Of a stretch of 64,000 nt of DNA, positions 14,670-64,000 are shown in pieces. Both the position numbers and the translations under genes were made by a program. The stretch is from the NCBI RefSeq assembly GCF_900142515.1, contig NZ_FRBC01000006.1, forward strand, positions 1-64,000. The letters run 5' to 3'. The notes beneath the pieces were generated by a model that was not told the origin of the DNA, ran no database searches, and was given only the letters and a program-made list of their open reading frames with translations. Position 1 is the first letter of the stretch; each line of letters starts with the position of its first letter. The stretch is from Pseudoselenomonas ruminantium. Its GTDB lineage: Bacteria > Bacillota > Negativicutes > Selenomonadales > Selenomonadaceae.

Positions 14670-15917
14670 TCAGTTCTTCAACACGAGATCCGCATCGGTC
14701 AGGGTACCTTCTTTGGCTTTCTGCGTCAATTCCGCCGTTGCCGTAAACAGCACATCACTGGAGCTGTTCAGTGCCGTTTCACAGGAATCCTGCAATACGC
14801 CAATGATGAAACCGACACCGACCACCTGCATGGCAATATCATTGCTGATGCCAAACGACGAGCAGGCTACGGGAATCAGCAGCAGGGAACCGCCGGCCAC
14901 TCCCGAGGCACCGCAAGCGCCTACCGTAGCAATAATGCAGAGGAGCAAGGCCGTAGGCAGGTCCACATCAATCCCCAGGGTATGCGCACAAGCCAGAGAT
15001 AATACCGCAATGGTGATAGCCGCACCACTCATGTTGATGGTAGCCCCCAGCGGAATGGAAACGGAATAGGTATCCTTATGCAAGCCCAAACGTTCACAGA
15101 GTTCCATATTCACAGGGATATTAGCCGCCGAACTTCTCGTGAAGAAAGCATAGAGCCCGCTTTCCCGCAAAGTCGTCAACACCAGCGGATACGGATTACG
15201 GTGAATGTGCATATAGACAATCAGCGGGTTCATGATCAGGGCTACGGAGAAGAATGCCCCCAGGAGCACAGCCAGCAGATGGAAGTAACCCATGATGGCT
15301 TCCGCGCCGTTGGTGCCGATGGCATCTGCCACCAGGCCCATGATGCCAAAGGGTGCCAAACGGATAACCCACTGTACCAGCTTCGTGACGGCCTTGGCAA
15401 AATCATTCAAGGTTTCTTTCGTACTGTCCGAAGCGCTGTGCAGAGCCAGACCGGTCAGCACACCCCAGGCAAGGATGCCGATATAATTGGCGCTGGCAAT
15501 GGCATGGATGGGATTATCCACCACATTCAGCACGAGATTGTGCAGGACTTCCAGGATGCCGCTTGGCGGCGTAAGCTTCGCATCAGCCAACTGCAGCTGC
15601 AAGGTGGTAGGGAATGCGAATGAATAAGCCACTGCCACCAGCGATGCAAAGAACGTAGCCAACACATAGAGCCGGACAATCGGCTTCATCGAAGCACTGG
15701 CATCCGCATTTTTCTGAGCCATAGCATTCATGACGAGCACGAACACCAATACCGGTGCCACGCCCTTCAATGCCCGTACGAACAAATCACCGAATATAGC
15801 CACCAACGGCACCATTCCCGGTGCAGTCAGGGCGATGATGATACCAATTACTAAACCAACTGCGATTAGCTTGATCAGGGCAGTTTCCATATATTTCCTG
15901 CCAACTTTTCTAAACAT
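14670..15917 (-). CDS. sstT: Serine/threonine:sodium symporter SstT
   Basis: Sodium-driven serine/threonine uptake (DAACS family). The 415-residue inner-membrane protein has family signatures [35 protein letters not shown], and [14 protein letters not shown]. Two ATGs nine bases apart are possible; GGAGG abuts the upstream one (15926) but is eight to nine bases from the ATG at 15917, so I chose the latter. It has a strong promoter (15987-16015) and its own terminator, so it is monocistronic. Confidence 0.95.
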
Positions 15918-53953: not shown

Positions 53954-54736
53954 TTATTTTGTAATATTAGCATGCGCTTTTAGTGGTGTAATTGCTTTCA
54001 ATATAACATTGAAATGTTTTTGCACATAAGCAGATTTTTCCCAAGGAGTCGATAGCATCATATCCTTAAAAAGCCCTGTGGAATGATCGGGATTTGTAAT
54101 CGCAATCATAGAAGAATATTTTGCTTTAAGTACCAATCTAGTGCTCTTTAGATAATTTTTCCGAACATCGTCATTGTTTTCAAGAAGTGAAACGTACTTT
54201 TGCGCTTCTTCATAAATTATTTTACCACTTTCGTTTTTTTCTTTAACTGCATTCATTAAAAGTGTTTCTATTGCACCCTGTTCATAAAAAGGAAATATCA
54301 CTGGCGTAATTTTTGTAGATGCTATTTCTCCATTGGGGCATTCTATATTACACATAGTTGAAGTATTATTTTGAAGTGACAAACCATCTATTATATTTTC
54401 AGCCATACCAGCCAATATTTCTTTCTCATCGTCATTATCTCTATCACGTACAATAACAACAGATTCCGGAGATGCTGATGGTATTTCCTTTACAAATTTA
54501 TCGATTATTATATGTAAAGGTTCTGCAAAACTATCCTTTCCGCCTACACTCCATATAGCAACACCATCATTATCTTTTTTCATATAAATTACCTTGCGAC
54601 CAGATTTGTTTTCCGGAATCTTATAACTTGTCCACAAGGATTTACCATTGTCCATCATCCATCCATCGATTTTATGCAGAAAATAGGAAATAAACCAAAG
54701 GTCATCCTGACCTTCACATAATATAACGGATTTCAT
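53954..54736 (-). CDS. TOPRIM-domain protein (DUF4435/DUF3226-like), partner of an AAA ATPase
   Basis: A 260-residue protein. SVILCEGQDDLWFISYFL carries the TOPRIM glutamate (E8) and VVIVRDRDNDD carries the DxD pair (D98, D100), the metal site of OLD-type nucleases. The rest is unlike known domains to me. It overlaps the ATPase gene by four bases, in the order ATPase then TOPRIM, as in PARIS systems (AriA-AriB) and as a split version of OLD nucleases. AT content is clearly higher than in the flanking host genes, so transfer is likely. DUF family choice is uncertain. Confidence 0.75.
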   Translation of the reverse strand: MKSVILCEGQDDLWFISYFLHKIDGWMMDNGKSLWTSYKIPENKSGRKVIYMKKDNDGVAIWSVGGKDSFAEPLHIIIDKFVKEIPSASPESVVIVRDRDNDDEKEILAGMAENIIDGLSLQNNTSTMCNIECPNGEIASTKITPVIFPFYEQGAIETLLMNAVKEKNESGKIIYEEAQKYVSLLENNDDVRKNYLKSTRLVLKAKYSSMIAITNPDHSTGLFKDMMLSTPWEKSAYVQKHFNVILKAITPLKAHANITK

Positions 54737-55803
54737 ATTCGCAGCTCCAATTCATAATCTTCTCGGTCGTTATATGCTTCTTCCCCAGTTCGTATCTTGC
54801 TTCTCGTGATTTGCGAAGCATTATCTTTCCTCAAGGTAATGACACGTAATAAATCATCCTGTGAGAAATGGCTATGTGCAATAGATAAAATCGCATCTAA
54901 AGCTTCTGCACTATGCGTAGTAATAAATGCCTGTACATGATATTTCCTGCAAGCGTTCAAGAACCAATAGAATACATCTCTAAATGCCGAAACATGTATT
55001 GCATTATCAATTTCGTCTACCAGTATGATACCATTTTTACAATTTGCAATTTCCACAGCCAAGCAAAGAGCTTTTTGCATTCCCGCACCATACGAAAATA
55101 ACGGAAGCACTCCTCTTATTGTACTATGTAAGTAAATATCCTCATCTATGATACTAATATCCATAATGGTATCATCAAATGGTTTAATAATTTCTATCAA
55201 TTCTTCTTTACCATTATTTATAATATAATCTTTTATAGCATTCGCCGTGGTGCGATAGTAATTTATACCAGAAAACACATACGTTACATGATATAAATCA
55301 TTTTCATCAGCTGTGAATAGCGTATCTGTATTATTTATGATTTTATCATATTTATATTTTGGTTTTTTACTGGAAGTATTTGATATCTTTACAGATAAAT
55401 CCATCATTGTTTGCGGTTCACCTGATGTATTCGTTATTTTTCCAACAGTACCACCGGCTTCATAAAGATATCTTATATTTTTTATGTTAGCTCCGATTTT
55501 AATACGATATGATGCACTTGCTTCATCTGATTCTGTATCTTTTTGAAAAACACTTAAAACATATTGAACAATATTTTTCTTTCTAGCCTCTGGCGATACG
55601 CTAACTCTTATGGCCGAAAGGCTAATCAATTGTCCAATGTCGCTGGGGTTGGATAGGATACGAATTGCTTCTAGCGCACTTGTTTTCCCACAATTATTAG
55701 GGCCAGCAAGCACATTTACAAAGGATAAATCATTTATTTCTAATTCATTTATCCCTCTGAAATGATGGATGTTCATTCCGTTCAATATAAGTTGTTTCTC
55801 CAT
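54733..55803 (-). CDS. AAA15/OLD-like ATPase of a putative PARIS-type defence pair
   Basis: A 356-residue SMC/ABC-like ATPase. Walker A GPNNCGKT is at residues 34-41, just after the typical HHFRGINELEINDL start. The signature-like segment FSYGAGMQKAL, Walker B IILVDEIDNAIH (about residue 254), and the H-loop TTHSAEAL (about 296) are intact. The insert between Walker A and the signature is AT-rich and lacks known motifs. The size and partner fit AriA of PARIS or the AAA half of an OLD nuclease. It begins 19 bp after the restriction enzyme gene, so all three form one operon. Confidence 0.8.
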   Translation of the reverse strand: MEKQLILNGMNIHHFRGINELEINDLSFVNVLAGPNNCGKTSALEAIRILSNPSDIGQLISLSAIRVSVSPEARKKNIVQYVLSVFQKDTESDEASASYRIKIGANIKNIRYLYEAGGTVGKITNTSGEPQTMMDLSVKISNTSSKKPKYKYDKIINNTDTLFTADENDLYHVTYVFSGINYYRTTANAIKDYIINNGKEELIEIIKPFDDTIMDISIIDEDIYLHSTIRGVLPLFSYGAGMQKALCLAVEIANCKNGIILVDEIDNAIHVSAFRDVFYWFLNACRKYHVQAFITTHSAEALDAILSIAHSHFSQDDLLRVITLRKDNASQITRSKIRTGEEAYNDREDYELELRI

Positions 55804-55822
55804 AAAAACAATTTGTCTCCCT

Positions 55823-58800
55823 TCATTTGAAATATTTTTGGATTGCCGCTTCCTTTTCCTGCTTTAGCTTGAGAATTCGAGCTTGAGCAGCATTTTTCGA
55901 TTTGTCGGCCTGGGCTACAAAGTCGGCGAATTGGTTTTGAAGGTCTATTGGTGGCAATGTAATCGTAAATTTCTTTGCATCAGCAACATTTACGTGTGGA
56001 ACAGTAGCCCCTGTGTTTTTACTATCGGCCTGATGTTTGACGTCATCTGATATAAGAGCATACAGTAGATACTCTGGACAACACATACAAGGATTGGCTC
56101 TAAACAACATCACCCTTTGTCCTAAACAGAAATTATATCCTCTTGGCAATATAGCAGCATTACCATACGTTCCCTCACGACCGTATACAATATCGCCTGG
56201 CATAGGCTTGAGACGTTTGATTCGTTCTATATATTCATCTTTCGAAACATATTTCATGGTTGACCAGTCTATCCCCCCTAATTTTATTTCATTAGTTCGT
56301 ATAGCTGGATATACAAGTTCTCCTTGATATTTAGGAGTTGTATGTGGGCAATCTACAATATCCGAACAAACTTCTTCAATCTTAACAATAGGATATTCAC
56401 TACTTCCAAGTATCTCGATAAACCGTGATTTAATATCATCGTCACATTTTTTTATATCCTGCTCCAGATTCGTCACCTGCGAATCGATGACTTCGATTTC
56501 CTCCACCACTTTGCTTTGCACAGCAACGCTGGGAATTTGTACAGTCAAGCTCTTTATTCTTGCCGTAGATGCCCGGTTGCTGCGAGAGAATCTTTCGTAT
56601 TCGCCCTCTACCTGCAAAGCCAGGGCCAGGTATTTCGGCAATATCTTATCCGTATTTACCCGAATTACGCCGCAATGGTCGGTAGGATAGAACGGATAAT
56701 TTTCCGGCAGATAATTGACCATCCAATCCCCATCAATGCCCCAGATAACCGAAGGCTGGCTGAAATCTGTCAAGTTTTGCCTATTGATACGACCAAATTC
56801 CTCAAAGACATTAGCACTATAAACAGGATATTCGCCATCTTCTTCAATCTCTGAGGCCACTACACGATTGCCAATGCTGACAGAAAACTCCTTACCGTCC
56901 AGCTTGTAAGCCGTCATGCCTTCCTTTATCACCTGATGACGCACTTTTGTGGTTTTGATGGCCTTGTTGAAATTCACGCCGCCAAAATCCAGCATATCCG
57001 TTGTAGCCATGTAATGATAGTATTCACCCAAGTCACCAGTCGGTTCCTCCTGCGTTCCAAAGGACGCACGAACCACGGCTGCCAATGTGTCTGCGGCTTG
57101 CCTGTCCTGCGGATTATACAGCAGTCCTCCCAGCTTTTTGATTTGTATGCCTTCCTGCCCTTTCCGATTGCTCCAGCCATAGCCTAGGAATTTTTCCTGT
57201 CCCTTGTTGTCGTCCGGGGCTGTAATAATTAATGTGGTCTGTCCATAAGCCAAGGAAAAATACAGGAGCTTTTCCGCTTCTTTGCCGATAGCAAATTCAT
57301 AGAAAGCGACATTGCACCACTCCAGTTTTTCTTTCTCGCTCTTGGCCTGATAGCCCTTTTGCTTGACCTTGGCACTGTATTCTGCTGAGGACAGGAACGC
57401 TTTGGTATAGGCATCTATATAAGGTACATCTGCCCAACCATTGAAGTTACGTTGCCGGGTTACAAATTCGCCGTAAATGTTCCTCTCTACTTGAATTTTA
57501 TCCAAATATGCTGCCAGAATATCCTTATCTTCCCAATCCTCCAAGCTCTGCGCAGTTAGTATAGCTTGTACGCTGTCCTCACAAAGATCAATCTTTTTCG
57601 GTGGCTCTACAAACTTTTCGAGGAACATAATAACCGTATTCGTCCCTGTTGCGCCAAAAGTCTTGCTCCCCAACTTAACAATAGCGCGCAGACAGAAATT
57701 TTGCAACAGGGATTCACGAGCAGCAATAAAGCTCTCGCTTTCCTTGTTTAGAATACTACTGGGCAGAATCACAGCCGCTACCCCTTGGGGCTTTAACAGC
57801 TGGGCAATGCGCTCCACAAAAAGCGTTTCTATCTCCGAACCATTGTTGCTTATCTTGGCCAGAATGGTAAAATCATTGTCCTTCAATTTCAAATGCGGCT
57901 TAAAAGCCGCCACCGAATAGGGTGGATTGGCCACTAAAATATCGAAACTATGCGGACGGATATTTTTATCCACGTAATTTTCCAAACCATCGCCAAATAC
58001 AATGTTGCCAGCGCCAGCCCCATGCATAAAGAGGGAGATTTTGGACACTCTAGCCAAACGGTAATCTTTCTCTACACCATACAATTTTTCGCTCACCCAA
58101 GCATGTTCATCTTTTTGCACTAGGGCATTTACCGCCTCATACCCCTGGGTAAGAAAGTGCCCAGCTCCACAGGCATAATCAATGATTTTGGGATATTCCT
58201 GCTCTTTTTTCCGCAATATCTCGCTTAAAGGCAAACTGTCCCATACAAAACGAGTAATTGGCATAGGTGTAAAAAACTGCCCCTCATTTTGCTTGAAACC
58301 CTTGCTCAAAAGTTGCTCAAAAAGATCCCCCAGTGTCTGCAGGTCACGAGAACCTATAATACGATATTCTTCAAAGAGTTGTACCACTTCCACCAGTATT
58401 TTACCGTTCTGATAAAACAGCTCTTCATTATGCACATCTTTGAAGGCAAAATCATTGTTGGTATAAAATTTCAAACTACGCAAAGTCTTCTTCAGTTCCG
58501 CTATCAGCTTGTTTCTTTTCTGCCCCGTATATTGCTGGATTAAATTTTCAGCATAGTCATCTGCTACATAGAAAATCTGTTCCCGCATGAATTTCTCCAT
58601 GCCGTCACGATGCAAGCGCTGTAACCTGTCCTGGAGATTTTCATAGGTGTCCGTACCTACCTTGTACTGAAATTCCACCTCATCATCTTCATCTTTTTGA
58701 ATTTCATCCACCAGCTTGCAGATAAAGAGGGCAATCAGACGATTAAAAGCATTTTCCTTATCCGACACATTGTTGTGACGCAAGATTTCCTCAAAGCGGT

Positions 58801-59548
58801 TTACAATTTTGTCATTTTCGCTGAAATCCCGCAAATCTTTCTTCCGCAAGGGTTTGGCCCCAATCTCATAGGCCACAGTATCATCACGGAAGACCACATC
58901 GCCAAACAAGCGTTTCTCATAAGTTTCATCCCAAACAGCAAAAAGCTCCTCCACAGTATGTGCATCGTCATAAAGTTTTATGGAACTGTCCTGTTTTTGC
59001 GCAATCCGCATATTACTATCGTCATTACAAGAGATGCTGTCTGTTCGATAGGTAATCCGATTATCTTCCCAATCAGAAGCATACAGCAAAAGCCATTGAC
59101 AGGCATCTTCCTGCTTCCAGTATGAGATAAGCTGACCTCCATCAATCTGTGTTTGGCGCAGTTCGTTATCATACTCCCGGCCCGCTGTCTTGCACTCAAT
59201 GATAAAGAGCATCTTTCCGTCAGCTCCGGTCACACATATATCAGCTCGGCCGCTTTTAGCGTCATGCCCTAAGTGCCATTCCTTTTCCAGCTCGATGTGC
59301 TCTGGGCGATACCCCTTATCCAACAAACGATTCACACACTCGAAGACCACCATATTTTCCTTATGGGCCTCATCAAAATAAGCGTTACGTTCCCGCCCCT
59401 TTATCTTCTCCGGGTAAATCAGCTTTCTATTTTCCCAATCCACTTTCAGATAATCGTCATACTCCGGGAAATATTTTGCATACCCGCCATCGCTTTCTAT
59501 AAATTGCATATATTTTAATGCCGCCACAAAATTTTTAACAGTTATCAT
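55823..59548 (-). CDS. Single-chain restriction-modification enzyme (nuclease-methylase-specificity fusion)
   Basis: A 1241-residue protein, start at 59548 behind GGAGG. From the N-terminus: a PD-(D/E)xK nuclease of HsdR_N type (RADIC with D103, FIIECK with E118/K120); a linker; an HsdM-like N6-adenine methylase (GQFFTPMPITRF, SAM motif DYACGAGHFL about 457, catalytic VANPPY about 541); and from about residue 900 an HsdS-like part with two target-recognition regions separated by helices (DSQVTNLEQDIKKCDDDI; RILKLKQEKEAAIQKYF). There is no helicase, so it is a Type IIG/IIL-like enzyme. It leads the ATPase/TOPRIM pair. Confidence 0.88.
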   Translation of the reverse strand: MITVKNFVAALKYMQFIESDGGYAKYFPEYDDYLKVDWENRKLIYPEKIKGRERNAYFDEAHKENMVVFECVNRLLDKGYRPEHIELEKEWHLGHDAKSGRADICVTGADGKMLFIIECKTAGREYDNELRQTQIDGGQLISYWKQEDACQWLLLYASDWEDNRITYRTDSISCNDDSNMRIAQKQDSSIKLYDDAHTVEELFAVWDETYEKRLFGDVVFRDDTVAYEIGAKPLRKKDLRDFSENDKIVNRFEEILRHNNVSDKENAFNRLIALFICKLVDEIQKDEDDEVEFQYKVGTDTYENLQDRLQRLHRDGMEKFMREQIFYVADDYAENLIQQYTGQKRNKLIAELKKTLRSLKFYTNNDFAFKDVHNEELFYQNGKILVEVVQLFEEYRIIGSRDLQTLGDLFEQLLSKGFKQNEGQFFTPMPITRFVWDSLPLSEILRKKEQEYPKIIDYACGAGHFLTQGYEAVNALVQKDEHAWVSEKLYGVEKDYRLARVSKISLFMHGAGAGNIVFGDGLENYVDKNIRPHSFDILVANPPYSVAAFKPHLKLKDNDFTILAKISNNGSEIETLFVERIAQLLKPQGVAAVILPSSILNKESESFIAARESLLQNFCLRAIVKLGSKTFGATGTNTVIMFLEKFVEPPKKIDLCEDSVQAILTAQSLEDWEDKDILAAYLDKIQVERNIYGEFVTRQRNFNGWADVPYIDAYTKAFLSSAEYSAKVKQKGYQAKSEKEKLEWCNVAFYEFAIGKEAEKLLYFSLAYGQTTLIITAPDDNKGQEKFLGYGWSNRKGQEGIQIKKLGGLLYNPQDRQAADTLAAVVRASFGTQEEPTGDLGEYYHYMATTDMLDFGGVNFNKAIKTTKVRHQVIKEGMTAYKLDGKEFSVSIGNRVVASEIEEDGEYPVYSANVFEEFGRINRQNLTDFSQPSVIWGIDGDWMVNYLPENYPFYPTDHCGVIRVNTDKILPKYLALALQVEGEYERFSRSNRASTARIKSLTVQIPSVAVQSKVVEEIEVIDSQVTNLEQDIKKCDDDIKSRFIEILGSSEYPIVKIEEVCSDIVDCPHTTPKYQGELVYPAIRTNEIKLGGIDWSTMKYVSKDEYIERIKRLKPMPGDIVYGREGTYGNAAILPRGYNFCLGQRVMLFRANPCMCCPEYLLYALISDDVKHQADSKNTGATVPHVNVADAKKFTITLPPIDLQNQFADFVAQADKSKNAAQARILKLKQEKEAAIQKYFK

Positions 59549-59585
59549 TGATCCTCCAATGCCTTTTTGCAAAAATGTCCCTTTA

Positions 59586-59614
59586 ATTATACCGCAAACA
59601 GGAAAATTAACCAA
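59586..59614 (-). promoter_or_regulatory. Promoter of the defence operon
   Basis: TTGGTT, 17 bp, TATAAT on the minus strand, preceded by TGCGG, a near-extended -10. It lies 38 bp before the restriction enzyme start. Downstream genes have no obvious promoters of their own. Confidence 0.6.
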
Positions 59615-59624
59615 ACAAAACAGA

Positions 59625-59651
59625 CTGACCAATCAAAAAGTGACTGGTCAG
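59625..59651 (-). terminator. Terminator after hydG
   Basis: CTGACCAGTC-ACTTTTT-GATTGGTCAG on the minus strand, 10-bp stem with one G-T, followed by TCTGTTTTGTTT. It insulates hydG from the defence operon. Confidence 0.75.
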
Positions 59652-61228: not shown

Positions 61229-62314
61229 TCAATACACACGCACCGTAAGTGTATTATAACTGATTTCCACCAATTCCAGGTTAGCATCCGTAGCTCGCTG
61301 CATCTCATTCCAAAGCGTTTGCGGACTGCCACTATACATCACATTGAATATAGCCTTGCCACCGCTGTAACTGGCCAGATTCAGATTCCTTACGCCGTGC
61401 ACCCCCTCCACAGCCGTCTGCACCTGATTTATCTTGCTGAAATCAGCACCATATGCCACAACTTTCAGGTCCTGCCGATTCGTATACAATCCCGTGATCT
61501 GCCCGACAAAATATTCACCAATCTGTTTGCCAGCCTTGGCCAATGCCTTTTTGGCCGCTATGTTTTCCAAATTATCCACACCGGAACCATATTTCCCATC
61601 AGCAGCTATGATCTGCCCGGTTTTCGCAATGAACATCTTGGCCTCCACACGGGCACGGCAAGCCTGCAAACGGGAGCTTTTATTCCCTGGCAGCAACTGC
61701 GCCGGATCACCCGCCGATTCGCTGAAAGCCTCGCCCACGATCATGATATCCACGCCAAATTCCTGCGCAGCCTGACGCAAAGCCACCGCTGACATATTGT
61801 ACGGATTGCCATTGGGAATATCCACAGCTACTACATTGGAAAATCCAGATTCCACCAACGCCTTCACCACTGCCGTTTCCCCTGCAGGGTCAGGTATATT
61901 ATGACTGATATGCGTTTCCGGAATGCACACAGCAATACGTGGATTGCGTAACGTTACATCAATGATGCCCAAGCGGGCCAATTCCGTCATCAAAGCCGAA
62001 TTGGGCTGATCATCCACTACGGCATCAATGGTCACCTGCCAGCCGCTCACCGTCTGTGCACGCTGCCTGACTGTATAATCCCGGACAAAGCCACGCGCCT
62101 GGGTATAGATATTATCCCGGATAACGGTACTTTTATCTACCAGGGTCTGTGAATCCACCAAAACTCCCAGAGATTTTTCCACCGCCATGCGCAAAGCTTC
62201 GTTCTCCGCCTGCGAAGCCGTTACTCCGATGCCGGTGACGGTAACACTTTTGGCTGCTGCCGGCAGGCTCATCATCAACAGCAAAAGTCCCATGATCAGT
62301 ATGATTCGTTTCAT
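61229..62314 (-). CDS. Exported FlgT N-domain-like protein
   Basis: A 361-residue protein with a signal peptide (ILIMGLLLLMMSLPAAAKS). The first 110 mature residues (VTVTGIGVTASQAENEALRM, AVEKSLGVLVDSQTLVDKS, ARGFVRDYTV) resemble the N-terminal domain of FlgT, a periplasmic protein of Vibrio flagellar H rings. The rest (NPRIAVCIPETHISHN onward) has the alpha/beta pattern of TolB_N/CsgG-like domains, then an unassigned C-terminus. It starts immediately after the stop of the CsgG-like gene. A role in flagella or in another envelope structure is open. Confidence 0.65.
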   Translation of the reverse strand: MKRIILIMGLLLLMMSLPAAAKSVTVTGIGVTASQAENEALRMAVEKSLGVLVDSQTLVDKSTVIRDNIYTQARGFVRDYTVRQRAQTVSGWQVTIDAVVDDQPNSALMTELARLGIIDVTLRNPRIAVCIPETHISHNIPDPAGETAVVKALVESGFSNVVAVDIPNGNPYNMSAVALRQAAQEFGVDIMIVGEAFSESAGDPAQLLPGNKSSRLQACRARVEAKMFIAKTGQIIAADGKYGSGVDNLENIAAKKALAKAGKQIGEYFVGQITGLYTNRQDLKVVAYGADFSKINQVQTAVEGVHGVRNLNLASYSGGKAIFNVMYSGSPQTLWNEMQRATDANLELVEISYNTLTVRVY

Positions 62315-63169
62315 TTATTTTCCCCTCTTGACAATATCACCCTTTTGAATGGAACCGCCGCCTTCTGTTATCCGGCAAATGGCATAATCAGCCAACACCT
62401 CGGTCACTCTGGCTTTGCCCAGATTGATCTGCGTCATCCCAATGATCTTGCCATTGGCTTCCAAAGGCGTATCCTCCCGGGCAATCAGTAAGACATCCCC
62501 CTTGTGCAAGCCACTGCTCTGTCCCTGATCAATATAGATCTCACTGCCTTTTACTTCAATGATCCTGCCCGTAAAGGGATGCTGCGCCTGAATATCACGC
62601 ATGAAATGCTCTGCTACTTCCTTGCAGGCATTATACAGCGAATCATTCGCATCCTTGCCGCCACGGTCTGCCTCTACTGTCTTTGCCAGGACGACCTCAC
62701 TGGTCTGGCAGTCAACCATGCGCAATTCCACAGCGATACTGGTACGGTACGCTGCATCAAACTTGGCCGTAATGCGTTTCATGAAATTGGATTTATCCGC
62801 GGCCCTGGTCTTGACCATCGTTATTTTTCCTACCAGAATATACTGCCCGCCAAATATTTTCCCCATCTCTGCTACATATTCCGGATCGGCATATAAATTC
62901 TGAAAGCCCTGCTCCTGCATCGCCTTATCGAATTGTGTACGCTCCACCACCGTATAATTACCGCTTTCCTGCACAGCTACCACCAGCTGATCAGACATGA
63001 CATTCGCCACCGTCTCTTCACTTTCTGCAGAATCGGATAACACGAAGGTCTTTTCCAGCGGCATGATCGCCACTCGCTTCTTAGCCGCTTCTGTGGTCAT
63101 CATCCCCGCCCCCCATACGGCTGCAGCCAGGATTGCTATCCCTAAACATCTAAACAACGATCTCCACAT
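62315..63169 (-). CDS. Exported CsgG-like protein with a FlgT C-domain
   Basis: A 284-residue protein with a signal peptide (CLGIAILAAAVWGAGMMTTEA). Residues about 30-190 fit a CsgG/TolB-N-like domain (KKRVAIMPLEKTFV, DQLVVAVQESGNYTVVERTQ, GGQYILVGKITMVKT). From about residue 200 it has a domain like FlgT_C (GRIIEVKGSEIYIDQGQSSG, LHKGDVLLIARE, QKGDIVKR). There is no lipoprotein cysteine, unlike CsgG. It is 12 bp after the next gene upstream, which shares this C-terminal domain. Confidence 0.7.
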   Translation of the reverse strand: MWRSLFRCLGIAILAAAVWGAGMMTTEAAKKRVAIMPLEKTFVLSDSAESEETVANVMSDQLVVAVQESGNYTVVERTQFDKAMQEQGFQNLYADPEYVAEMGKIFGGQYILVGKITMVKTRAADKSNFMKRITAKFDAAYRTSIAVELRMVDCQTSEVVLAKTVEADRGGKDANDSLYNACKEVAEHFMRDIQAQHPFTGRIIEVKGSEIYIDQGQSSGLHKGDVLLIAREDTPLEANGKIIGMTQINLGKARVTEVLADYAICRITEGGGSIQKGDIVKRGK

Positions 63170-63181
63170 AATACACTCCTG

Positions 63182-64000
63182 TCATTTCACCAAACGCTTC
63201 ACCACATCATTTACCTTGATGTCCTCTGTACGAGACAATACAACGCATACCGCATATTCTGACAAAACTTCCACCACTTTGGCTTTGCCAATCTTCAATT
63301 CCTTCTTGCCTACCACTTTGCCGTTGATTGTCACATCCCCGCTGATGCGGAAGACCTCGAGTACCTCACCGACCTTGAGTCCGCTGGCACTGCCTTGATC
63401 AATATACAGGTTATCGCCGCCAATATCTCCTATAATCCCCCGGAAATTTCCTTTGGATTCCGCAGCCACCGGCTGTTGTGCCTCTTCCGGAGTTTCTGAC
63501 TTTGGCGTATCGGATGGTGCTTCCTCCGGAACTGCTGCCGTTTCCATAGCCTGCAGGATATTTTTGGCCATGTTCTGGCAAACATTGTATACAGCCTTCT
63601 CGCTGCTTGTCCCCACCTTGTCACTGGTAAAATTTTTCGTCAGGACGTTATGATTCGCAGATGCATCAAATAACCGGGCCTCTACAACCAGTTTCACCCC
63701 ATTGGTACTCGCAGAAATATCCTTCAACTCTTGTTTGGCTGCTTCCCGTTCTTCCGGAGGAACCGGTGTTCCATCGGGATTGTTCTCATGTCCCAGCCCC
63801 TTCCGGATCAGCGCTGTCACCTTCTCCCGATTGCTCTTGGGATCGTACAGGGCCACATCCGTAATGGTACAGCTCAGTTTATACGCCGGCTTGCTGCTAT
63901 CATCTTTCTCAACCGGGGTATAGATGCTGCTTTCCCGCAAAGCTGCAATCAGCTGTTCCTGCAGTTCCTTGACGGCTGCCGTTGCCTGTTCCCCCGCCAC
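63182..64000 (-). CDS. FlgT C-domain-like paralogue, N-terminus outside the window
   Basis: Partial; at least 272 residues are visible and the reading frame runs off the window end, where a signal peptide is expected. The visible first part (VKELQEQLIAALRESSIYTPV, LVVEARLFDASANHNVLTKN) looks like the second half of a CsgG-like domain. A proline/glutamate-rich linker (about residues 155-175) leads to a FlgT_C-like domain (GGDNLYIDQGSASGLKVGEV, VVEVLSEYAVCVV, VNDVVKRLVK), a paralogue of the one encoded at 62315-63169. Confidence 0.6.
   Translation of the reverse strand: MAGEQATAAVKELQEQLIAALRESSIYTPVEKDDSSKPAYKLSCTITDVALYDPKSNREKVTALIRKGLGHENNPDGTPVPPEEREAAKQELKDISASTNGVKLVVEARLFDASANHNVLTKNFTSDKVGTSSEKAVYNVCQNMAKNILQAMETAAVPEEAPSDTPKSETPEEAQQPVAAESKGNFRGIIGDIGGDNLYIDQGSASGLKVGEVLEVFRISGDVTINGKVVGKKELKIGKAKVVEVLSEYAVCVVLSRTEDIKVNDVVKRLVK

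What the first reader, a model, noticed from the sequence alone, without database searches (positions are those of the whole stretch)
61229..64000. FlgT domains distributed over tandem CsgG-like exported proteins
Seen: a FlgT N-like domain in one gene and FlgT C-like domains in the next two, each joined to CsgG/TolB-N-like parts; genes are 0 and 12 bp apart. Known: Vibrio FlgT has N, middle (TolB-like) and C domains in one chain and builds the periplasmic H ring of the flagellum. Inference: a split or duplicated ring or export system in a diderm Firmicute, possibly for its flagellum, whose motor must cross a periplasm.
Basis: partly seen in the sequence, partly recalled or inferred. Interest (0 to 1): 0.5.

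Follow-up and report, generated by a model that had tools for sequence, protein, structure and literature searches.

The report
Flagellar-ring-like periplasmic proteins without flagella
Next to each other in a diderm Firmicute lie genes for exported proteins built from the same domains as flagellar ring proteins of other bacteria, and some relatives that lack flagellar marker genes keep close copies, so they probably build a ring or scaffold in the cell envelope that does not depend on the flagellum.

Summary
Three minus-strand genes, 0 and 12 bp apart, encode exported proteins: orf1 has an SHS2 (FlgT_N/FlgP-type) domain and a CsgG/FlgT_M-like middle; orf2 is CsgG-like plus FlgT_C; orf3, a diverged orf2 homologue, starts at 64114, outside the window. 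The FlgT_N link appears only through homologues and fold, not from the window protein alone by Pfam. The pair is conserved in Negativicutes: 33 of 35 copies examined have an orf2 homologue within 443 bp, often with a FlgP-like gene. All 98 genomes with an orf1 homologue have FlgP-like genes, against 23 of 154 others. Class-wide, carriers are mostly flagellate, so a role beside flagella is not excluded. Best reading: a FlgT/FlgP-type periplasmic ring or scaffold not dedicated to the flagellum; ring and function are inferred.

The parts
61229..62314 (-). orf1: exported 361-aa protein (signal-peptide-like start, SHS2/FlgT_N-like domain, CsgG/FlgT_M-like middle, C-terminal ferredoxin/HMA-like domain)
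62006..62251 (-). orf1 residues 22-103: SHS2 domain of the FlgT_N/FlgP kind
   Evidence: A1 profile v 9hmf E 5.9e-5; hhalign v FlgP-like family 97.9%; model aligns to FlgT 3w1e residues 1-90, Z 7.6, 69 residues, rmsd 3.4
62087..62167 (-). orf1 residues 50-76: insert between SHS2 helix and second strand, where FlgP carries its ring-forming hairpin
   Evidence: gap-free alignment to 9hmf through this stretch; low confidence in the model; meaning of the insert from PMC12222027 (passages)
61469..61963 (-). orf1 residues 118-282: CsgG/TolB-N/FlgT_M-like middle domain (moderate support)
   Evidence: hhalign A7 v A2 95.6%, E 1.1e-8; no PDB match by sequence, best E 0.12 to an unrelated ligase
61232..61483 (-). 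orf1 residues 278-361: C-terminal alpha/beta domain, not FlgT_C
   Evidence: model pLDDT block means 74-87; weak HMA match E 0.0043
62315..63169 (-). orf2: exported 284-aa protein, CsgG-like domain plus FlgT_C
62663..63028 (-). orf2 CsgG/LpoB/FlgT_M-like domain
   Evidence: Pfam CsgG 55 bits; family profile v CsgG E 2e-6, FlgT 1.4e-4, LpoB 4e-4
62327..62545 (-). orf2 FlgT_C domain
   Evidence: Pfam FlgT_C 27.7 bits, just above cut-off; 29 of 29 family members match at E <= 0.1; TsaP C-terminal region E 5.9e-11
63182..64000 (-). orf3: diverged homologue of orf2, 310 aa; start at contig position 64114, outside the window
63197..63418 (-). orf3 FlgT_C-like domain (sub-threshold alone)
   Evidence: 16.4 bits; homology to orf2

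Best explanation
orf2 and orf1, with FlgP-like proteins encoded beside them in many relatives and elsewhere in this genome, are parts of a periplasmic ring or scaffold built from the domains of the flagellar H-ring and basal disk proteins (FlgT, FlgP), but used as a cell-envelope structure of Negativicutes and not as a dedicated flagellar part. Proposed working: the proteins are exported by Sec and not lipidated; the SHS2 domain of orf1, with its hairpin insert, and that of the FlgP-like protein polymerise side by side into a ring or disk under the outer membrane; orf2 joins through its CsgG/TolB-N-like domain and puts its FlgT_C domain on the ring as a contact to the outer membrane or to a machine passing through it. 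orf3 is a second, diverged FlgT_C subunit, seen in this genome and in two relatives (G129, L005). Shown: domains, conserved pairing, genome co-occurrence with FlgP-like genes, presence in genomes without flagellar markers. Inferred: export, ring formation, location, function.
For: Domain matches. orf1 SHS2 by profile and by fold: Foldseek's best match is FlgT 3w1e (E 7.5e-3, prob 0.85), 9hmf prob 0.97; Z 7.6 to FlgT's first 90 residues, level with dodecin at 7.8. Insert kept without gap; PMC12222027 (passages) reports that ring formation in this family correlates with that insert. Third gene A3 v 9hmf E 1.8e-22 and v Vibrio FlgP 9.4e-11. Pair kept: in 30 of 30 loci within 443 bp (26 with orf2 upstream on the same strand, 1 downstream, 3 on the opposite strand) and in 3 more; exceptions below. 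Co-occurrence with FlgP-like genes 98 of 98 v 23 of 154; their best E in orf1-positive genomes is <= 3.1e-36, while the A3 profile's cross-match to an orf1-type gene in the window's genome scored 1.3e-6. Close orthologues in four genomes without FlhA, FlgH and flagellin, which in the tree fall between the window's flagellate family clade and the other flagellates (drawn with a midpoint root).
Against: Class-wide, orf1 orthologues and FlgP-like genes are commoner in flagellates (29 of 152 v 4 of 100; 110 of 152 v 11 of 100); 55 FlhA-less genomes of other families have neither, and in family f2 (39 genomes, no FlhA) only 6 have an orf1 homologue. The within-family control rests on 6 genomes; three genomes first counted as FlhA-less (G130, G154, G170) carry FlgH or flagellin. 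Two of 35 orf1 copies looked at have no clear orf2 homologue next to them (second copy of G098, about 6 kb away; G182:C22, only a weak one). No ring was shown; no Foldseek match to orf1 reaches E 0.001; the orf2 model is unusable (pLDDT 41.7), the orf1 model weak (50.3). In the window's genome the FlgP-like genes are not adjacent. The window's three proteins have no lipobox-like motif, and 9 of 10 FlgP-like ones have none.
Confidence: 0.5

Rival explanations
1. Flagellar accessory ring: in flagellate Negativicutes the proteins form an H-ring or basal-disk-like structure around the L-ring, and the non-flagellate carriers keep or reuse it.
For: Domain similarity with FlgT and FlgP; class-wide enrichment in flagellates; the window's genome has FlhA, FlgH and flagellins.
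Against: Close orthologues in four genomes without three flagellar markers; no association inside the window's family; most flagellates lack a close orf1 orthologue (29 of 152 have one); no flagellar neighbours recognised.
Confidence: 0.2
2. Collar around a type IV pilus or other secretin, in the way of TsaP.
For: The best solved match of the orf2 family is TsaP, through its FlgT_C-like region (E 5.9e-11); secretins occur in 247 of 252 genomes, including all four non-flagellate carriers of close orthologues, and in G054 a secretin gene (C8:71062-71541) lies about 5 kb from the pair; one FlgP-like gene of this genome lies near a gene whose start reads like a type IV pilin (L076, by eye).
Against: No LysM domain in orf1-orf3; secretins are near-universal, so presence does not discriminate; G054 is the only locus where I noticed a secretin close by (the list is capped).
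Confidence: 0.15
3. LpoB-like activators of peptidoglycan synthases, or other envelope regulators using the CsgG/LpoB fold.
For: LpoB matches 28 of 29 orf2-family members at E <= 0.1, the window's orf2 above Pfam's cut-off (24.0 v 22.3 bits), and LpoB structures match at 4e-4.
Against: NCBIfam LpoB far below its cut-off (19.2 v 110.55 bits); no lipobox; does not explain the FlgT_N, FlgT_C and FlgP-like partners.
Confidence: 0.1
4. A CsgG-type outer-membrane secretion pore.
For: CsgG matches all 29 orf2-family members.
Against: No lipobox-like motif in 29 of 29; no curli genes recognised nearby by eye; barrel hairpins not testable on the poor model; CsgG, LpoB, TolB-N and FlgT_M share one kind of fold (recalled), so the name alone is weak.
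Confidence: 0.05

Closest known systems
Vibrio FlgT (H-ring; PDB 3W1E, 8Z5N)
   Same: N (SHS2), M (CsgG/TolB-N-like) and C domains are all recognisable; exported
   Different: Split: orf1 has N and an M-like part plus another C-terminal domain, orf2 has M-like and C; kept in genomes without flagellar markers
FlgP of Campylobacter and Vibrio (LPP20 family)
   Same: Third gene of the module matches it at E 1.8e-22 and 9.4e-11; orf1's SHS2 domain keeps the insert
   Different: Negativicutes proteins have an extra C-terminal domain and, in 9 of 10, no lipobox-like motif
TsaP (secretin-associated, PDB 3JC8)
   Same: FlgT_C-like domain (E 5.9e-11)
   Different: No LysM domain in the window proteins
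CsgG / LpoB
   Same: Core domain of orf2
   Different: No lipobox; extra FlgT_C domain; no curli or PBP context recognised
Vibrio FlgO
   Same: Match in 5 of 29 orf2-family members at E <= 0.1, best 1.9e-6
   Different: The window protein is below the cut-off (14.8 v 22.6 bits) and carries FlgT_C

Membership tests
FlgT (Vibrio H-ring protein) | N, M and C domains in one chain | tested here: not met
   N and M-like in orf1, M-like and C in orf2
FlgT (Vibrio H-ring protein) | FlgT_C above Pfam's gathering score | tested here: met
   orf2 27.7 v 27 bits, 31 bits in the genome scan; orf3 16.4, below
FlgT (Vibrio H-ring protein) | FlgT_N above Pfam's gathering score | tested here: not met
   window orf1 no hit; three relatives printed 13.9-22.7 v 28.8 bits; 16 of 25 relatives at E <= 0.1, best 1e-5, bits of the best not shown
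FlgT (Vibrio H-ring protein) | Part of the flagellum; found only with flagellar genes | tested here: not met
   close orthologues in G017, G026, G038, G098 without FlhA, FlgH, flagellin; class-wide enrichment in flagellates remains
FlgT (Vibrio H-ring protein) | Forms a ring around the L-ring | not testable with these tools
   needs microscopy
FlgP / LPP20 (third gene in relatives) | LPP20 domain above the gathering score | tested here: met
   4 of 6 third genes scanned above 25.9 bits, two below; both own-genome FlgP-like genes above it
FlgP / LPP20 (third gene in relatives) | Lipoprotein | tested here: not met
   lipobox-like motif in 1 of 10 (simple pattern)
CsgG curli channel | CsgG domain above the gathering score | tested here: met
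   orf2 55 v 20.8 bits
CsgG curli channel | N-terminal lipidated cysteine | tested here: not met
   0 of 29 orf2-family members with a lipobox-like motif (simple pattern)
CsgG curli channel | Membrane-spanning hairpins forming the barrel | tested here: inconclusive
   orf2 model unusable, pLDDT 41.7
LpoB | NCBIfam equivalog cut-off | tested here: not met
   19.2 v 110.55 bits
TsaP | LysM domain joined to FlgT_C-like domain | tested here: not met
   no LysM match in orf1-orf3

The most novel reading that the evidence does not exclude
Diderm Firmicutes keep a flagellum-independent outer-membrane ring or disk system made of FlgT-, FlgO/CsgG- and FlgP-type proteins, in places enlarged to arrays of more than ten exported genes, and the flagellar H-ring and basal disk of Proteobacteria and Campylobacterota were recruited from such an envelope system.
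Probability: 0.2. Interest if true: 0.75.

Novelty: new variant of a known kind. Interest (0 to 1): 0.52.

Why it matters
FlgT, FlgO and FlgP are known as flagellar accessories. A conserved module of the same domains in diderm Firmicutes, kept by some members without flagellar markers, offers a place to ask where the flagellar periplasmic rings came from and what such rings do without a motor. Genomes without flagellar markers (G098, G017, G026, G038) would make a ring, if one exists, visible without the motor in the way.

Tried and rejected
Flagellar dedication: tested by presence in genomes without flagellar genes and rejected as the sole role; class-wide enrichment in flagellates is real and is reported. 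The first count of FlhA-less family members (9) was wrong as a count of non-flagellates for three of them (G130, G154, G170 have flagellin or FlgH), so the count was redone with 6. The secretin test did not discriminate (247 of 252). Structure of orf2 unusable. A search of viral contigs with the orf1 alignment found no relatives; the orf2 alignment had no stretch conserved enough for such a scan. Middle domain of orf1 found no solved relative by sequence. An orf1-like paralogue on contig C20 found none either. Promoter and terminator scans gave nothing clear: 10 promoter-like sites v 5.3 expected, on both strands; 2 terminator-like sites v 2.5 expected, both on the strand opposite to the genes. 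Literature (5.39 million open-licence papers): no paper held FlgT with CsgG, FlgT with CsgG and LPP20, or TsaP with FlgT; searches combining FlgT/FlgP with Negativicutes (12 papers, none with the word Negativicutes) or with genus names (20 of 1,575 listed) showed by title no paper on such a module. (FlgP and basal disk; Negativicutes outer membrane) likewise, by title. Absence from that library is not absence from print.
Full report
What is there. On the minus strand the window ends in three genes read in the order orf3, orf2, orf1: orf1 61229-62314 (361 aa), orf2 62315-63169 (284 aa), orf3 63182-64114 (310 aa), 0 and 12 bp apart. orf3 starts 114 bp outside the window (contig C14 is 127,296 bp long). 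All three have a hydrophobic N-terminal stretch that looks like a signal peptide (by eye) and no lipobox-like motif (simple pattern). Upstream genes on the contig read by eye as recR and ybaB, followed by glycoside hydrolases GH9 and GH16; a further diverged orf2-like gene lies about 12 kb upstream (contig C14:76549-77412).

Domains. orf2: CsgG 55 bits and FlgT_C 27.7 bits, both above Pfam's cut-offs (FlgT_C only just); LpoB 24.0 (above its 22.3), FlgT_M 24.4 and FlgO 14.8 (below theirs). Over 29 family members CsgG and FlgT_C match 29 of 29 at E <= 0.1 and LpoB 28. The family profile against solved structures: TsaP E 5.9e-11 through the C-terminal domain, CsgG 2e-6, Vibrio FlgT 1.4e-4, LpoB 4e-4. 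CsgG, LpoB, TolB-N and FlgT_M share one kind of fold (recalled), so this part does not by itself fix a function.

orf1 alone gives no useful Pfam match, but FlgT_N matches 16 and LPP20 9 of 25 family members at E <= 0.1; the profile matches the lipoprotein of the Campylobacter motor scaffold structure 9hmf at E 5.9e-5 over 77 columns without a gap. The PDB sequence file calls that chain 'Lipoprotein, putative'; that it is FlgP is my inference and PMC12222027. A two-sequence AlphaFold model has mean pLDDT 50.3, with block means of 58-79 in the SHS2 core and 74-87 in the C-terminal domain, the rest low. Foldseek ranks FlgT 3w1e first (E 7.5e-3, prob 0.85) and 9hmf has prob 0.97, but no match reaches E 0.001 and unrelated chains follow closely; the structural aligner puts dodecin (Z 7.8) and FlgT residues 1-90 (Z 7.6) on top, values that may be reached by common arrangements. 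What makes them worth more is that dodecin, Lpp20, FlgP and FlgT are just the group that PMC12222027 reports as sharing this SHS2 fold (passages seen). The same passages say that ring formation in the family goes with an insert between the SHS2 helix and the second strand; orf1 has that stretch at 9hmf's length. The middle of orf1 resembles the orf2 family's CsgG-like domain (hhalign 95.6%, E 1.1e-8) but matches no solved chain by sequence. Its C-terminal domain is not FlgT_C; a weak HMA match (0.0043) fits a ferredoxin-like fold.

A conserved module. Among 252 Negativicutes genomes (the class search, at least 90% complete), 98 have an orf1 homologue at E <= 1e-3 and 33 a close one at E < 1e-44, in 36 copies. 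In 30 of 30 loci that one search returned, one for each of 30 of those 33 genomes, an orf2 homologue (over 100 bits) lies within 443 bp: in 26 upstream on the same strand, in one downstream, in three on the opposite strand. Of the other six copies, three (G175, G177, G178) have one within 48 bp, the second copy of G098 has one about 6 kb away, one copy of G182 (C22) has only a weak one, and one copy of G182 (C25) was not looked at. In 10 of the 30 loci (about 1.5 kb of flank each) a third exported gene of the FlgP/LPP20 family lies in the flank, and further ones appear in longer stretches. That family's profile matches 9hmf at E 1.8e-22 and Vibrio FlgP at 9.4e-11. It occurs in 121 genomes: in all 98 with an orf1 homologue and in 23 of 154 without. 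The A3 profile can cross-match the SHS2 domain of orf1-type genes, but such a match scored only 1.3e-6 in the window's genome, while the best A3 match in every orf1-positive genome is at most 3.1e-36; shared ancestry still inflates the count. In the window's own genome the FlgP-like genes are on C45 and C19, away from orf1.

Flagella. FlhA was found in 149 of 252 genomes. Close orf1 orthologues in genomes without it: G017, G026, G038 and G098 (two copies, single contig), all with a full-length orf2 homologue: adjacent in G017, G026, G038 and beside the first G098 copy, about 6 kb away from the second. FlgH and flagellin searches found neither in these four, but showed that three other FlhA-less genomes (G130, G154, G170) do have FlgH or flagellin. 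With that correction, within the window's family orf1 homologues occur in 74 of 101 genomes with flagellar markers and 4 of 6 without (p = 0.66), FlgP-like genes in 84 of 101 and 5 of 6. Against this, over the whole class the close orthologues are commoner with flagella (29 of 152 v 4 of 100, p = 4e-4), FlgP-like genes too (110 of 152 v 11 of 100); in family f2, where none of 39 genomes has FlhA, only 6 have an orf1 homologue (3 of them close), and 55 FlhA-less genomes of other families have neither orf1 nor FlgP-like genes. Only 12 of the 103 FlhA-less genomes were re-tested with FlgH and flagellin; the other 91 were not. G017 is 91% complete, so single absences there mean less. In a tree of 25 orf1 proteins and six paralogues, drawn with a midpoint root, the non-flagellate sequences fall between the window's flagellate family clade and the other flagellates, as expected for a gene kept through loss of flagella, though transfer is not excluded and some branches are long. 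No flagellar gene was recognised near the pair; most neighbours were judged by eye from their first residues, and eight flanking genes around six of the loci by Pfam, one of them without a match.

A second, related cluster. On contig C20 the genome has an orf1-like gene next to CsgG-like genes, a CAP-domain and a TPR protein. The genomes G017 and G038, without flagellar markers, carry relatives of several of these genes (an orf1-like gene, short CsgG-like genes, uncharacterised exported proteins, a CAP protein) in one run together with the orf2-orf1 pair and a FlgP-like gene (L044, L047). An autotransporter-domain protein lies inside the G017 run. Such runs of exported ring-family genes in bacteria without flagellar markers are the strongest hint at a separate envelope system.

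How it may work. Inferred: Sec export, polymerisation of SHS2 domains through the insert into a ring or disk under the outer membrane, orf2 as the partner carrying FlgT_C outwards. FlgP and FlgT form disk-like motor accessories, and in Helicobacter the lipoprotein FapH, whose gene is in an operon with flgP, forms a ring near the outer membrane that is suggested to help preserve its barrier function during flagellar rotation (PMC11756786, passages; PMC12222027, passages). An envelope-bracing role or a collar around another outer-membrane machine (TsaP-like) both fit; the data do not choose between them. For the second, one locus (G054) has a secretin gene about 5 kb from the pair.

Verdict.

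Noticed in passing
window 53954-59632 (-): Defence island: a Type IIG-like restriction-methylase (1269 aa; PADLOC REase_MTase_IIG E 6.6e-283), an AAA ATPase (PDC-M38A E 7.9e-103, AriA E 1e-22) and a partner (PDC-M38B E 3.9e-113) with a weak OLD-like TOPRIM match just below its cut-off.
   Followed up: partly
L038 (contig C20:15001-35000): Second cluster of exported CsgG-like genes with an orf1-like gene, a CAP-domain and a TPR protein; several members are conserved in G017 and G038, which lack flagellar markers.
   Followed up: partly
L044 1167-15956: Run of 14 genes, mostly exported by eye, in a genome without flagellar markers: two orf1-type, several CsgG-like, one FlgP-like, an autotransporter-domain and a CAP protein.
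   Followed up: partly
L004 18549-19412 (contig C14:76549-77412): Diverged full-length orf2 paralogue (30% identity) beside a gene that reads as dnaX by eye.
   Followed up: no
L076 8338-9243 (contig C45): FlgP-like (LPP20) gene of the window's genome, next to a TPR protein and a few kb from a gene that starts like a type IV pilin by eye.
   Followed up: partly
L052 about 15063-15542 (G054:C8:71062-71541): A secretin gene about 5 kb from the orf2-orf1-FlgP-like cluster of G054.
   Followed up: no
genome G000, contigs C16, C26, C27 and C29: Twelve matches to the flagellin N-terminal domain, eight of them on C26.
   Followed up: no
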